Positions 26,910 through 31,039 of a DNA stretch of 64,000 bases are shown here, one piece after another. Source of the DNA: a virus; the IMG/VR virus record IMGVR_UViG_3300028800_000060, positions 62,001 through 126,000 of that record, one strand, 5' to 3'. The translations under genes and the position numbers were made by a program. The notes beneath the pieces were generated by a model. The model saw only the letters and a list, made by a program, of their open reading frames with translations, was not told the DNA's origin and made no database searches. Numbering within the stretch: position 1 is the first letter of the stretch; every line of letters begins with the position of its first letter.

Positions 26910-26986
26910 CGGGATGTAGCGCAATCTGGTAGCGCATCTGATTTGGGATCAGAGGGTCGCTGGTTCGAATCCAGCCATCCCGACCA
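26910..26986 (+). tRNA. tRNA-Pro (anticodon TGG)
   Basis: Complete cloverleaf of 77 nt: acceptor CGGGATG/CATCCCG, D-arm, anticodon stem TCTGA/TCAGA with loop TTTGGGA, GGTTCGAAT T-loop, and an encoded CCA tail. Anticodon TGG reads CCA/CCG proline codons. It is the only tRNA in the window. It follows the stop of the preceding gene directly. Confidence 0.95.
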
Positions 26987-27284: not shown

Positions 27285-27827
27285 ATGAGCAATATTTTTT
27301 TGACAGCCGATACCCACTTTGGGCATTGCAACATTCTGAAGTACTGTAATAGGCCTTTTAAAGATCACGAGGAAATGAATGAAGGAATTATTTCTCGATT
27401 TCTTGAAGTCTTGAGAAATGGAGATACCTTATATCATCTGGGTGATGTTTGTCACTCACATTTTCCTATAAAATCTTGGCTAGATAGAATGCCGGGAATT
27501 CAAGTTCACTTAATTTACGGTAACCATGATAAACATAAATTACTTTTACACCCTAAGATTATTTGGACGGGTGAACGCAAAGGTGTCCAAATTGGCAAAG
27601 ATCGGTTTGAATTATTTCATTATCCTATGAGGAGTTGGAACCATAAAGGACATGGTGCATATCATTGCTTTGGTCATTGTCACGGAAGACTTCCAATATA
27701 TGACCGAAGTATGGATGTTGGAGTAGATACACACAATTATTATCCTTATCATGTTGATGAAATTGTAAAGACTTTGAAAGATAACCCATTTTTTCATGAT
27801 AGTGATCATCACAATAAAGGAATATGA
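27285..27827 (+). CDS. Metallophosphoesterase
   Basis: Second calcineurin-type phosphoesterase: TADTHFGH, LGDVCH, YGNHDKH and CFGHCHGR supply the two-metal ligand set in order over 180 residues. This is the compact type resembling bacterial and phage nucleotide or nucleic-acid phosphoesterases. ATG 27285 lies 1 base after the preceding stop. Substrate unknown. Confidence 0.85.
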   Translation: MSNIFLTADTHFGHCNILKYCNRPFKDHEEMNEGIISRFLEVLRNGDTLYHLGDVCHSHFPIKSWLDRMPGIQVHLIYGNHDKHKLLLHPKIIWTGERKGVQIGKDRFELFHYPMRSWNHKGHGAYHCFGHCHGRLPIYDRSMDVGVDTHNYYPYHVDEIVKTLKDNPFFHDSDHHNKGI

Positions 27828-28066
27828 CAGTAAAAAAATTAGAAACGAAGAAATTGGACCCCGTAGACTACAAACACAAAGATATTCCGTTTATGTTTTT
27901 TACGGCAGGCTCTCTAGCATGCGAATTATTCCTTAATGCCGAGGAAATTATTTATAAGCTTACCAATAATGGTATTAAGAAATATTGTATTGATCCAGAA
28001 AATACTTTTTTTGATGTGATGGAAGTGGAAATCGATAAAATCTCGTGGCGTGTTAAAAGTGCATAG
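27824..28066 (+). CDS. Small protein, unknown
   Basis: 80 residues, mixed charged, not recognised. It overlaps the phosphoesterase gene as ATGA. The tmRNA acceptor segment begins only about 15 bases after its stop, so it probably shares a transcript with it. Confidence 0.6.
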   Translation: MTVKKLETKKLDPVDYKHKDIPFMFFTAGSLACELFLNAEEIIYKLTNNGIKKYCIDPENTFFDVMEVEIDKISWRVKSA

Positions 28067-28080
28067 TTGTTCGTAAAGGT

Positions 28081-28252
28081 GGATGTGGCATAGCTTAAGT
28101 ATAAAGCACTACGGCATCCGGTGAAATACGGGGATGAACCATGTTATACCAAATGAAAGGTTGGTTGCCCACCAAGAATTTTAGCGGTATTATCGTATAG
28201 ATCTGTGTAGACACTTTTTCGGACCCGGGTTCGACTCCCGGCAGGTCCACCA
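28081..28252 (+). ncRNA. ssrA: Permuted tmRNA, acceptor (3') piece
   Basis: Contains the 3' half of a tmRNA: CGGACCCGGGTTCGACTCCC, a T-arm with 5-bp stem CCGGG/CCCGG and loop TTCGACT (28225-28241), followed by acceptor strand CAGGTCC, discriminator A and encoded CCA (28250-28252). The upstream part (28081-28224) presumably supplies the pseudoknot region and part of the long stem, which I did not fold in detail. The 5' end is approximate. Normally this half lies downstream of the tag; here it comes first, so the gene is circularly permuted. Confidence 0.85.
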
Positions 28253-28349
28253 AGATACACTAAATGGGTAACAGACTGGCCTCTTTTAATACATTCTCTA
28301 GTGGGCTGGCGAAGTGCAATGGGACCTAGAGCATTTGGTGTATCTCGGT
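28253..28349 (+). other. tmRNA internal spacer (to be removed)
   Basis: 97 nt between CCA and the 5' acceptor strand. Its ends pair: AAGATACACTAAATG (28253-28267) with CATTTGGTGTATCT (28332-28345), continuing into the acceptor stem. The spacer therefore forms a long clamp that would bring both ends of the future molecule together for RNase P and 3' processing. Confidence 0.7.
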
Positions 28350-28475
28350 GGGCCTGTAATGGTTTCGACGAGACTGTTGCGAGCATGGTGCGATACGTGG
28401 ACTACCCACGTTAAACAGAAGAAAACAACAAAAGACACAGAAATGTATCTAGCAATGGCTGCGTAAGCAGCATTG
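28350..28475 (+). ncRNA. ssrA: Permuted tmRNA, coding (5') piece with tag
   Basis: Starts with GGGCCTG (pairs with CAGGTCC of the acceptor piece; one G-U) and TAATGGTTTCGACG, the tmRNA D-loop signature. A pseudoknot-1 stem ACGTGG/CCACGT follows. The tag frame runs through KTTKDTEMYLAMAA to a TAA at 28464-28466, which sits in the GTAA loop of a hairpin (CAATG-CTGC / GCAG-CATTG), as in known tmRNAs. The resume codon is not certain: no Ala codon lies upstream in frame. The tag ends in -AA like protease-recognised tags. Confidence 0.85.
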
Positions 28476-28536
28476 AGGGGTTTGGTAGTTTTCCTTTTTA
28501 CCCAAAAACTACCCCCTTCGGGGTTCCCTCCTTTTT
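28476..28536 (+). terminator. Hairpin and terminator after tmRNA
   Basis: GGTAGTTTT pairs with AAAACTACC, and ACCCC-CTTC-GGGGT with a following pyrimidine/T-rich stretch forms a rho-independent-like stop. It ends the tmRNA transcript before the gp33 promoter. Confidence 0.6.
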
Positions 28537-28545
28537 AAATAATTC

Positions 28546-28574
28546 TTGCAAAATAAAAATGTCTGTGATATAAT
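28546..28574 (+). promoter_or_regulatory. Host-type promoter, TTGCAA-N17-TATAAT
   Basis: -35 at 28546-28551, -10 at 28569-28574; ATG 28581 exactly 6 nt downstream. Serves gp33 as a leaderless mRNA. Confidence 0.75.
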
Positions 28575-28580
28575 ATAAGC

Positions 28581-28838
28581 ATGAATATAAATCTGTTGGT
28601 AGATGAAGCGGTATTCGAAACACTTTTCATTGACCATCCCTTATACACAATGACACCCCATTCATTTGCTCTAGAAATTGAACGAATTGTACGGGAACAA
28701 AAGATAGATTATTTGGCCGCAACAGCGCAATTATGCGAACAATATGAAATCGATTATTCCTCTATTCCCAAACTCCTTACAAAAACAATGAAAGAAAAGA
28801 TTGAAGTATCCGCACTTGAAAGAAATTATAAAATATGA
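28581..28838 (+). CDS. gp33: Late-transcription coactivator, gp33-like
   Basis: gp33 links the phage late sigma factor and the sliding clamp to RNA polymerase and is needed for activated late transcription. The core ALEIERIVREQKIDYLAATA followed by a Glu-rich helix, IPKLL and a KEKIEVSALE end matches the gp33 pattern of T4-like phages (T4: 112 residues; marine forms shorter, as here with 85). It is followed by gp59 and gp32, the same gene neighbourhood as in T4. The start coincides with the predicted +1. Confidence 0.8.
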   Translation: MNINLLVDEAVFETLFIDHPLYTMTPHSFALEIERIVREQKIDYLAATAQLCEQYEIDYSSIPKLLTKTMKEKIEVSALERNYKI

Positions 28839-28841
28839 TTT

Positions 28842-28970
28842 ATGAAATTTAAATGCAAAATTATTTTCCGTTGGTATGATTTTTGGATTGGTGCGTTCTT
28901 AGATACTCACAAACATAAATTATATATTTTCCCCATACCAATGGTTGGTATTGAAATACAATTTCCGTGA
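28842..28970 (+). CDS. Short conserved-type phage protein (42 residues)
   Basis: 42 codons: basic N-terminus, RWYDFWIGAFLD and KLYIFPIPMVGIEI, a pattern I recall from many phages as a short conserved hypothetical protein. It overlaps gp59 by 4 bases (GTGA). No function known. Confidence 0.65.
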   Translation: MKFKCKIIFRWYDFWIGAFLDTHKHKLYIFPIPMVGIEIQFP

Positions 28971-29590
28971 ATGCCTTTGAAGCTTACGAAACCTATCTTT
29001 CGATAAAACAACACTTCACTCAGAAGTCTTACGACTTCCATAAGTATAATGGAAAAGTCAACACTTCAGTTTCTCGTTTTGAATCTCGTCCCGATAGAGC
29101 TTTTTTCTATAAAATTTCCAAGAAATATCCTAAAGATAAATTGATAGATTTCTTCGTTGCTAATTTTGTTGCCAATCCTTTTTCTTGGATTGGCGATATG
29201 ATGGATGATTATTCTGAGGAAGTTTATATCGACTGGAAGAAAAAAATTGAAAGTTTAACTTATTATTTTTCGGAAGAGTGCGATGCTATGTTGCATTGGG
29301 CCGAAATGAATAGTTATAAATTTAATGACCTATTTAAAATCAATGGTTCAGATCATCCGATTATTGTTAAAATGTCATTGCAACGTGTCCTTAGTTTCGA
29401 ATCTTTTATTATCCTCAATAGGATATTTTCTTTTGGACAAAATTTCGATAGAAAAATGGAAGATGTAATTTGGAAAGAATTTTGGTTTAAAATTTGCAAA
29501 TATGAAACCTTTCTAAATAATATTGATAGGAAGAAATGTAAACAAATTCTTCGAAATAAAATAGAAACGGATTATCCCCATGTTGTATGA
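28967..29590 (+). CDS. gp59: Helicase loader, gp59-like
   Basis: gp59 loads the replicative helicase gp41 onto gp32-coated lagging-strand or recombination intermediates. Order of motifs: NAFEAYETYLSIKQHF, KYNGKVNTSVSRFESRPDR, FFVANFVANPFSWIGD and VLSFESFIILNRIF, close to T4 gp59 (217 residues; here 207). Helical throughout. GTG start, overlapping the small gene upstream. Its partner gp32 is two genes downstream. Confidence 0.92.
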   Translation: MNAFEAYETYLSIKQHFTQKSYDFHKYNGKVNTSVSRFESRPDRAFFYKISKKYPKDKLIDFFVANFVANPFSWIGDMMDDYSEEVYIDWKKKIESLTYYFSEECDAMLHWAEMNSYKFNDLFKINGSDHPIIVKMSLQRVLSFESFIILNRIFSFGQNFDRKMEDVIWKEFWFKICKYETFLNNIDRKKCKQILRNKIETDYPHVV

Positions 29591-29932: not shown

Positions 29933-29961
29933 TTGACATACCTTAAAATTTGTGATATACT
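29933..29961 (+). promoter_or_regulatory. gp32 promoter, TTGACA-N17-TATACT
   Basis: -35 at 29933-29938, -10 at 29956-29961. A CTAAATAG late-type box (29960-29967) overlaps the -10, so both early and late transcription may start here. The leader is about 75 nt long. Confidence 0.75.
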
Positions 29962-29967
29962 AAATAG

Positions 29968-30043
29968 AATAGTAGTTCCTATATTATGGAGGTCCTGTGA
30001 ACAAGACAAATACAAATACAAAAAAAGAGAAAATATAAAACAT
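29968..30043 (+). promoter_or_regulatory. gp32 leader, likely autoregulatory
   Basis: Contains a potential stem GTTC/GAAC around a GGAGG, then an A-rich, structure-poor stretch up to the start codon. A four-codon frame, ATG GAG GTC CTG TGA, opens at 29986. In T4, gp32 binds its own leader through a pseudoknot and an unstructured A/U-rich region; the layout here is similar. Confidence 0.5.
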
Positions 30044-31039
30044 ATGAGCTTTGCATCATACAAAAAGAGTCGTACAGATTTAACAAGTTTAAATAAAAAA
30101 GTAGAAGAAATTGCCGAAGGTACTCGAAAGTCTTTTAAAGACGAGCGTATTTGGAGAGTTACCGTCGATAAAGCTGGTTCTGGTTCCGCCCGCCTCAGGT
30201 TTTTATCTGCCCCAGATGGAGAAGATCTTCCTTGGGTTCAATATCACGAACATAATTTTTCTATCAATGGGTCTTATTTTATAGAATTATGCCCGACCAC
30301 ATTAGGACGTGAATGCCCTGTCTGTAAGGCAAACAATGTTTTGTGGAATCTTGATGGTGGTGTTAAGGAAAATCAGGATATTGTTCGTAATAGAAAACGT
30401 AAGTTAGTCTATATTTCCAATATCTACGTCATTAAAGATAAAGAAAATACAGAAACCGAAGGAAAGGTTTATCTTTATCAATACGGACAAAAAATCTTCG
30501 AGAAGATCAAAATGGCATTAAAGCCTAAGGATGAAGATGATCCTGCTGTTAATGTTTTTGATTTTTGGGAAGGTGCTGATTTTGCTTTAGAAGTAAAGAA
30601 TGTTGCTGGTTATCGTAATTACGATGATAGTAAATTCAGGGCACCGTCAGCCTTATTGTCTGGCGATGATAAGAAACTCGAAGAGATTTATAAGAAGTTA
30701 TATCCACTTCTTCCCTTCAAGGATGAAAAGAAATTTAAGTCCTACGAAGAGTTGGAAAAGAAATTCAATGATGTAATTTCTGGAGTAAAAGGAAAAGTAC
30801 AGAAAAAAGCTGATCAACTTTTCCCTGAAACCGCGCCAGTGGCCGCCGATGCACCAGCGCCAAAGAAAGAACGTAAACCTAAAGAAACTGCCACAGAAGA
30901 AACACCTTGGAAGGAACCTACACGCAAGCCCAAGGCATCTTCTAAAAAAGAACCAAAAACTGAACCAACAGTTGAAGATGTTCCTTTAGAGGATAATGAT
31001 GCATTAAATTATTACGAACAACTAGCAGAAGAAAACTAA
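30044..31039 (+). CDS. gp32: Single-stranded DNA-binding protein, gp32-like
   Basis: gp32 coats ssDNA in replication, recombination and repair. Basic N-terminus (SYKKSR), then the OB-fold core with HEHNFSINGSYFIELCPTT and GRECPVC. His 70, Cys 83, 91 and 94 are in the positions of the T4 zinc ligands (His 64, Cys 77, 87, 90), with a slightly shorter gap between the first two Cys. The C-terminal tail is disordered and Pro/Lys/Glu-rich and ends acidic (PLEDNDALNYYEQLAEEN), the protein-interaction tail. ATG 30044 fits homologues; it is followed by a strong terminator. Confidence 0.95.
   Translation: MSFASYKKSRTDLTSLNKKVEEIAEGTRKSFKDERIWRVTVDKAGSGSARLRFLSAPDGEDLPWVQYHEHNFSINGSYFIELCPTTLGRECPVCKANNVLWNLDGGVKENQDIVRNRKRKLVYISNIYVIKDKENTETEGKVYLYQYGQKIFEKIKMALKPKDEDDPAVNVFDFWEGADFALEVKNVAGYRNYDDSKFRAPSALLSGDDKKLEEIYKKLYPLLPFKDEKKFKSYEELEKKFNDVISGVKGKVQKKADQLFPETAPVAADAPAPKKERKPKETATEETPWKEPTRKPKASSKKEPKTEPTVEDVPLEDNDALNYYEQLAEEN

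What the first reader, a model, noticed from the sequence alone, without database searches (positions are those of the whole stretch)
28081..28536. Circularly permuted two-piece tmRNA gene in a phage
The tmRNA 3' end (T-arm and CCA, 28225-28252) lies upstream of its 5' end (GGGCCTG and the GGTTTCGACG signature, 28350-28369). The acceptor strands CAGGTCC and GGGCCTG pair. The tag frame ends MYLAMAA with its stop in a hairpin loop, as in known tmRNAs. Permuted tmRNAs are known from alphaproteobacteria, some betaproteobacteria and picocyanobacteria. Phage tmRNAs of the ordinary type exist; I do not know of a well-documented permuted phage case, but cannot search. The absence of an Ala resume codon is also unusual. 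It would let the phage control ribosome rescue and tag host or phage proteins.
Basis: partly seen in the sequence, partly recalled or inferred. Interest (0 to 1): 0.9.

Follow-up and report, generated by a model that had tools for sequence, protein, structure and literature searches.

The report
Permuted two-piece tmRNA in myophage
This phage carries a genuine circularly permuted gene for tmRNA, the RNA that frees stuck ribosomes and tags the unfinished protein, but such genes are already published from a related group of marine phages, so it is a new member of a known kind with one slightly unusual detail (its tag starts with aspartate instead of alanine).

Summary
A circularly permuted tmRNA gene lies at about 28191-28530: 3' acceptor piece ending in CCA at 28252, a 97-nt intervening sequence, then the 5' tag-coding piece from 28350. 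Rfam's tmRNA_permuted model (RF04321) matches at 97.4 bits, E 1.1e-17. All 7 acceptor pairs form, with the G3:U70 pair and A73 needed for alanine charging. The novelty claim is wrong. Two-piece tmRNAs are published in phages (53 of 133 distinct phage tmRNA structures; Methylophilales phage Melnitz, PMC9004378). Window and Melnitz share the gene order tmRNA, gp33-like coactivator, gp59-like helicase loader, gp32-like ssDNA-binding protein, and Mosig and Melnitz are the best isolate hits to its baseplate wedge protein (~40%). Of 19 viral loci found through the gp33-like gene, 16 carry a permuted tmRNA (many near-identical); a T-arm pattern found dozens more in IMG/VR. The missing alanine resume codon is real: likely GAC (tag DTEMYLAMAA), shared by most relatives, whereas 59 of 59 other viral permuted tmRNAs surveyed have alanine. 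Aspartate resume codons are rare but known in bacteria. No SmpB was found in the phage record. Most likely it is a working phage tmRNA used with host SmpB; activity is inferred.

The parts
28191..28252 (+). tmRNA acceptor (3') piece as modelled by RF04321: 3' strand of P2, T-arm, 3' strand of acceptor stem, A73, CCA. The mature 5' end is unknown; beta_tmRNA extends it to 28140.
28225..28241 (+). T-arm CCGGG-TTCGACT-CCCGG, 5/5 pairs
28242..28252 (+). acceptor 3' strand CAGGTCC, A73, encoded CCA
   Evidence: U70 pairs with G3 (alanine identity pair)
28253..28349 (+). intervening sequence (97 nt) expected to be removed; its ends AGATACACTAAATG (28253-28266) and CATTTGGTGTATCT (28332-28345) pair in the minimum-energy fold
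   Evidence: overall fold only z -1.30
28350..28530 (+). tag-coding (5') piece: acceptor 5' strand GGGCCTG (28350-28356), TGGTTTCGAC (28360-28369), P2 5' strand, tag, stop hairpin, 3' pseudoknot-like region; 3' end approximate
28429..28433 (+). CAAAA, the five bases before the resume codon: A at -4 and a pyrimidine at -5, as the frame-setting element requires in E. coli (PMC2481249)
28434..28466 (+). tag reading frame GAC..TAA, DTEMYLAMAA* (10 aa; likely resume codon GAC, Asp)
   Evidence: same column as GCA in other permuted tmRNAs
28458..28471 (+). hairpin GCTGC-GTAA-GCAGC with the stop codon in the loop
   Evidence: region 28455-28530 folds with z -2.72
28484..28513 (+). GGTAGTTTT/AAAACTACC stem of the 3' domain, aligned to the stem of the beta tmRNA model
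28581..28838 (+). context: gp33-like late-transcription coactivator (phrog_254), the syntenic neighbour of ssrA in Melnitz

Best explanation
It is a phage-borne, circularly permuted ssrA gene of the Melnitz/pelagimyophage type. One precursor transcript (inferred) is cut by host tRNA-processing enzymes (inferred; RNase P before G28350, 3' processing after the encoded CCA at 28252, loss of the intervening sequence) to give two RNAs held together by acceptor and P2 pairing. Host alanyl-tRNA synthetase charges it through G3:U70 (element shown, charging inferred). With host SmpB it enters stalled ribosomes, translation resumes at GAC, DTEMYLAMAA is added and the ribosome is released at the TAA; the hydrophobic ...MAA end would send the product to host proteases (inferred). 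The benefit to the phage is probably to keep ribosomes free and clear unfinished proteins while host mRNA is being destroyed.
For: RF04321 97.4 bits over the whole model. Acceptor 7/7, G3:U70, A73, T-stem 5/5; across 12 phage sequences every acceptor stem is 7/7, pair 4 occurs as GC, CG, UA and AU, and G3:U70 is invariant, which is strong evidence of selection on the structure. Same place as the published ssrA of Melnitz, upstream of gp33-like and gp59-like genes (PMC9004378). Of 19 viral loci found with the gp33-like gene, 16 have a permuted tmRNA (many of these loci are near-identical, about seven distinct tmRNAs). D-, N- or A-starting, AA-ending tags and the -5/-4 grammar are kept in most divergent relatives.
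Against: No RNA data. Host unknown, so host ssrA and SmpB could not be compared. No SmpB in the phage record, so it depends on the host. ARAGORN does not call it at default settings. The beta_tmRNA match is just below its gathering score.
Confidence: 0.87

Rival explanations
1. A decoy: the RNA is made and binds SmpB or stalled ribosomes but mainly blocks host trans-translation, as reported for the tRNA-like-domain-only RNA of mycobacteriophage DS6A.
For: Precedent reported in PMC4131195 and PMC11915505; no SmpB in the phage record.
Against: Unlike DS6A the tag frame, stop hairpin, 3' domain and the A at -4 before the resume codon are kept, and tags are kept in divergent relatives.
Confidence: 0.08
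2. A decaying fragment of a host ssrA left by imprecise prophage excision or by integration, without function.
For: ssrA is a common integration site and fragments occur in prophages (PMC9004378).
Against: Gene is complete; compensatory changes keep the acceptor stem paired in 12 of 12 phage sequences; kept beside gp33 in most relatives; core genes are those of a T4-like myophage; single copy in the record. A scan of 84,980 species genomes for its 20-nt 5' signature hit nine records titled Lachnospiraceae or Clostridiales, not read further, so no close bacterial source was identified.
Confidence: 0.03
3. A chance match or a conventional tmRNA read out of order.
For: None beyond ARAGORN's negative result.
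Against: E 1.1e-17 for the permuted model; no conventional tmRNA match and no T-arm plus CCA found downstream.
Confidence: 0.01

Closest known systems
ssrA (two-piece tmRNA) of Methylophilales phage Melnitz EXVC044M (MZ577097.1, PMC9004378)
   Same: Permuted gene, RF04321 match (113 bits), next to the gp33-like coactivator, then gp59-like helicase loader and further on the ssDNA-binding protein; Kyanoviridae myophage; no SmpB found in the record
   Different: Melnitz: Ala resume codon GCA (tag ANDNYVPVDYALAA), intervening sequence 142 nt, alpha-type model match, glutamine riboswitch at the 3' end. Window: GAC resume codon, 97 nt, best older model is beta-type, no riboswitch match near the gene
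Permuted tmRNAs upstream of the gp33-like gene in IMG/VR contigs (L032, L155, L159, L162, L183, L184, L190)
   Same: Same place, similar A-rich run before the tag, D-, N- or A-starting tags ending AA; five of these seven share the GAC resume codon
   Different: Shorter intervening sequences (6-29 nt); L032 has a degenerate T-loop; those with an older-model match fit the alpha model
[quoted passage not shown]
   Same: Gene order, tRNA-like domain, G3:U70, stop in hairpin loop, 10-codon tag
   Different: Phage-borne; Asp instead of Ala resume codon; Asp resume codons are recorded only rarely, e.g. Staphylococcus epidermidis (PMC1168896)

Membership tests
Permuted (two-piece) tmRNA, RF04321 | Covariance model match above gathering score | tested here: met
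   97.4 bits against 47, full model
Permuted (two-piece) tmRNA, RF04321 | 3' acceptor piece upstream of 5' coding piece, joined by an intervening sequence, acceptor strands pairing | tested here: met
   CCA at 28250-28252, G1 at 28350, 97 nt between, 7/7 pairs
Permuted (two-piece) tmRNA, RF04321 | G3:U70 and A73 for alanine charging | tested here: met
Permuted (two-piece) tmRNA, RF04321 | Tag reading frame with upstream frame-setting element and a stop in a hairpin loop | tested here: met
   CAAAA|GAC ... TAA; GCTGC-GTAA-GCAGC
Permuted (two-piece) tmRNA, RF04321 | Ala resume codon (usual, not obligatory) | tested here: not met
   GAC at that column; Gly, Asp, Arg, Ser and Glu resume codons are recorded for tmRNAs in PMC1168896, so this is not a defining feature and does not exclude membership
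Permuted (two-piece) tmRNA, RF04321 | Two mature RNAs, charging, SmpB binding and tagging | not testable with these tools
   needs RNA and biochemistry
Melnitz-type phage ssrA locus | Permuted ssrA upstream of gp33-like coactivator, then helicase loader, then ssDNA-binding protein | tested here: met
   28581 gp33-like, 28967 gp59-like, 29933 gp32-like against Melnitz
Melnitz-type phage ssrA locus | Glutamine riboswitch at the 3' end (in Melnitz; common but not defining according to PMC9004378) | tested here: not met
   no riboswitch match at E up to 5 in 27800-28600; 52.8 bits in Melnitz
beta_tmRNA RF01850 | Score above the family's gathering threshold | tested here: inconclusive
   82.2 bits against 84; close relatives match alpha_tmRNA instead

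The most novel reading that the evidence does not exclude
A lineage of T4-like phages has moved its two-piece tmRNA from an alanine to an aspartate (once asparagine) resume codon, so that rescued proteins get a D-starting tag unlike the usual host tag; the change would alter how host SmpB sets the frame or which protease or adaptor takes the tagged protein, a phage-specific rewiring of trans-translation.
Probability: 0.2. Interest if true: 0.5.

Novelty: new member of a known kind. Interest (0 to 1): 0.27.

Why it matters
It adds an uncultured phage lineage to those known to carry a two-piece tmRNA beside gp33, shows that the common gene finder ARAGORN misses eight of the twelve phage genes tested here, and shows that most of this phage clade lacks the alanine resume codon, giving a natural set of sequences for testing how the resume codon is chosen. 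It is not a new kind of system.

Tried and rejected
Upstream 28081-28139 as part of the RNA (for example a tRNA-like element or riboswitch): no Rfam match, fold z -0.44. Phage-encoded SmpB: none in this record or in six related records. Close bacterial source through its 5' signature: nine hits in genomes titled Lachnospiraceae or Clostridiales, which I did not read further. Related DNA among 50,697 phage records: none at megablast level for two 23-25 kb stretches, only short T-arm fragments at distant level; none in plasmids. AAA (28431) as resume codon instead of GAC also fits the -5/-4 grammar, but alignment with relatives and ARAGORN's own call in L190 (DEQYALPMAA) favour GAC. An exact scan of viral contigs with the window's 5' signature found nothing. 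The promoter scan gave no convincing promoter before the tmRNA; a good one (TTGCAA-17-TATAAT, 28546-28574) lies after it, before gp33.

Full report
What is there. The sequence at 28191-28530 is a circularly permuted tmRNA gene. The Rfam model for permuted tmRNA (RF04321) matches 28191-28466 over its full length with 97.4 bits, E 1.1e-17, against a gathering score of 47. The older beta_tmRNA model matches 28140-28527 with 82.2 bits, E 4e-25, just under its gathering score of 84. ARAGORN reports nothing, but it also misses seven of eleven related phage sequences tested the same way, so this is a limit of the program. In gene order: T-arm CCGGG-TTCGACT-CCCGG, acceptor strand CAGGTCC, A73, CCA (28225-28252); intervening sequence (28253-28349); acceptor strand GGGCCTG and TGGTTTCGAC (28350-28369); tag frame (28434-28463) with TAA in the loop of GCTGC-GTAA-GCAGC. 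Nothing downstream looks like a conventional 3' half.

Is it under selection? In 12 phage sequences (the window, eight IMG/VR relatives or low-scoring look-alikes, Melnitz, and two beta-type ones) the acceptor stem is 7/7 paired in every case; pair 4 is seen as GC, CG, UA and AU, pairs 5 and 6 in three forms each, while G3:U70 and A73 never change. The intervening sequence varies from 6 to 142 nt. That is the pattern of a chargeable tRNA-like domain kept by selection and a spacer that is thrown away. In the window the two ends of the spacer form a 14-pair stem next to the acceptor stem in the minimum-energy fold, though the spacer as a whole folds only slightly better than shuffles (z -1.30).

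Which phage. The record is a 175,698-base virus contig with T4-like genes: baseplate wedge, tail tube cap, RNA ligase, polynucleotide kinase, primase, ribonucleotide reductase. [quoted passage not shown] Just after the tmRNA come a gp33-like late-transcription coactivator (28581-28838), a gp59-like helicase loader (28967-29590) and a gp32-like ssDNA-binding protein (29933-31039). Melnitz has tmRNA, late-transcription coactivator, helicase loader and, further on, ssDNA-binding protein in the same order, and its tmRNA matches RF04321 with 113 bits. Of 19 viral loci found with the gp33-like protein as query, 16 have a permuted tmRNA nearby (11 of 14; four more; one). Many of these loci are near-identical copies, about seven distinct tmRNAs in all, and one of the three without a match (L160) starts less than 1 kb before gp33, so absence there is not shown.

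What is already known. PMC9004378 describes the two-piece tmRNA of Melnitz, reports 53 two-piece forms among 133 distinct phage tmRNA structures, mostly marine or aquatic, and finds permuted tmRNA in 17 of 47 contigs clustering with Melnitz. PMC11915505 lists 79 bacteriophage tmRNA sequences and introduces the very model used here. A single exact T-arm pattern found permuted tmRNAs in dozens of IMG/VR contigs. A permuted tmRNA in a phage is therefore not new.

The resume codon. The tag frame is fixed by its end (MYLAMAA and TAA). In E. coli the start is set by the five bases before the resume codon, above all A at -4, with a non-A base at -5 (PMC2481249). Aligned on this element, the window reads CAAAA|GAC, giving DTEMYLAMAA, 10 codons, which is also the most frequent tag length in the database (PMC11915505). 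Relatives read CAAAC|GAC (L032, L159), CAAAA|GAC (L184), TAAAC|GAC (L190), AAAAA|GAC (L183), TAAAC|AAC (L162) and TAACA|GCC (L155); the more distant L033 reads GAACT|GAC; Melnitz reads TAATT|GCA. ARAGORN, where it does call a gene of this clade (L190), gives the tag DEQYALPMAA, starting at the same GAC. In contrast, all 59 distinct viral permuted tmRNAs from the T-arm pattern with enough sequence downstream have an alanine codon there: 55 by script, the other four by eye. The GAC could have arisen by loss of six bases from TAAATGCAAACGACGAA, leaving TAAACGACGAA (inference). Non-alanine resume codons are known in bacteria, aspartate in three sequences of one survey (PMC1168896), so this is a rare variation, not a new mechanism. 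An alternative start at AAA (28431) is not fully excluded.

How it most likely works. Shown: complete two-piece architecture, alanine identity pair, tag, stop hairpin, conserved locus, no SmpB gene in this or six related records. Inferred: processing by host RNase P and other tRNA-processing enzymes, charging by host alanyl-tRNA synthetase, use of host SmpB, tagging and proteolysis. The likely benefit is keeping ribosomes free and clearing unfinished proteins when host mRNA is broken down; [quoted passage not shown] A decoy role like that of the DS6A tRNA-like domain is less likely because the tag and its grammar are kept.

Limits. The host is unknown, there are no RNA data, and the placement as alpha-type or beta-type is unclear because the window fits the beta model best whereas close relatives fit the alpha model.

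Noticed in passing
L039, L041, L045, L046, L052, L063, L069, L084, L101, L110, L123, L151 (IMG/VR contigs): Permuted tmRNAs in viral contigs with tags of about 24-31 codons instead of 10, many sharing a core like DFSAMSFTGNTV (e.g. ANADTFDFSAMSFTGNTVSGKSKVALAA); no match to this tag in the phage collection.
   Followed up: partly
L032:1501-1718 and L033 (reverse strand, 1692-1501): Phage permuted tmRNAs with low model scores whose T-loops depart from TTCGANT (L032 stem GAGGC/GCCTC around TGCGAT; L033 GGCAGAG) although acceptor stem, G3:U70 and tag are intact.
   Followed up: partly
28546-28574: Promoter-like site TTGCAA-17-TATAAT with an extended -10 between the tmRNA and the gp33-like gene; a similar sequence stands before gp33 in L032.
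   Followed up: no
26910-26986: tRNA-Pro(TGG) upstream of the tmRNA; a tRNA gene also lies upstream of the tmRNA in most related loci.
   Followed up: no
L183:4331-4713 and L185:4331-4713: Group I intron (RF00028, 77 bits) downstream of gp33 in two related phage contigs.
   Followed up: no
28253-28266 with 28332-28345: The ends of the tmRNA intervening sequence can form a 14-pair stem that would extend the acceptor stem in the precursor; L030 has a similar pairing by eye.
   Followed up: partly
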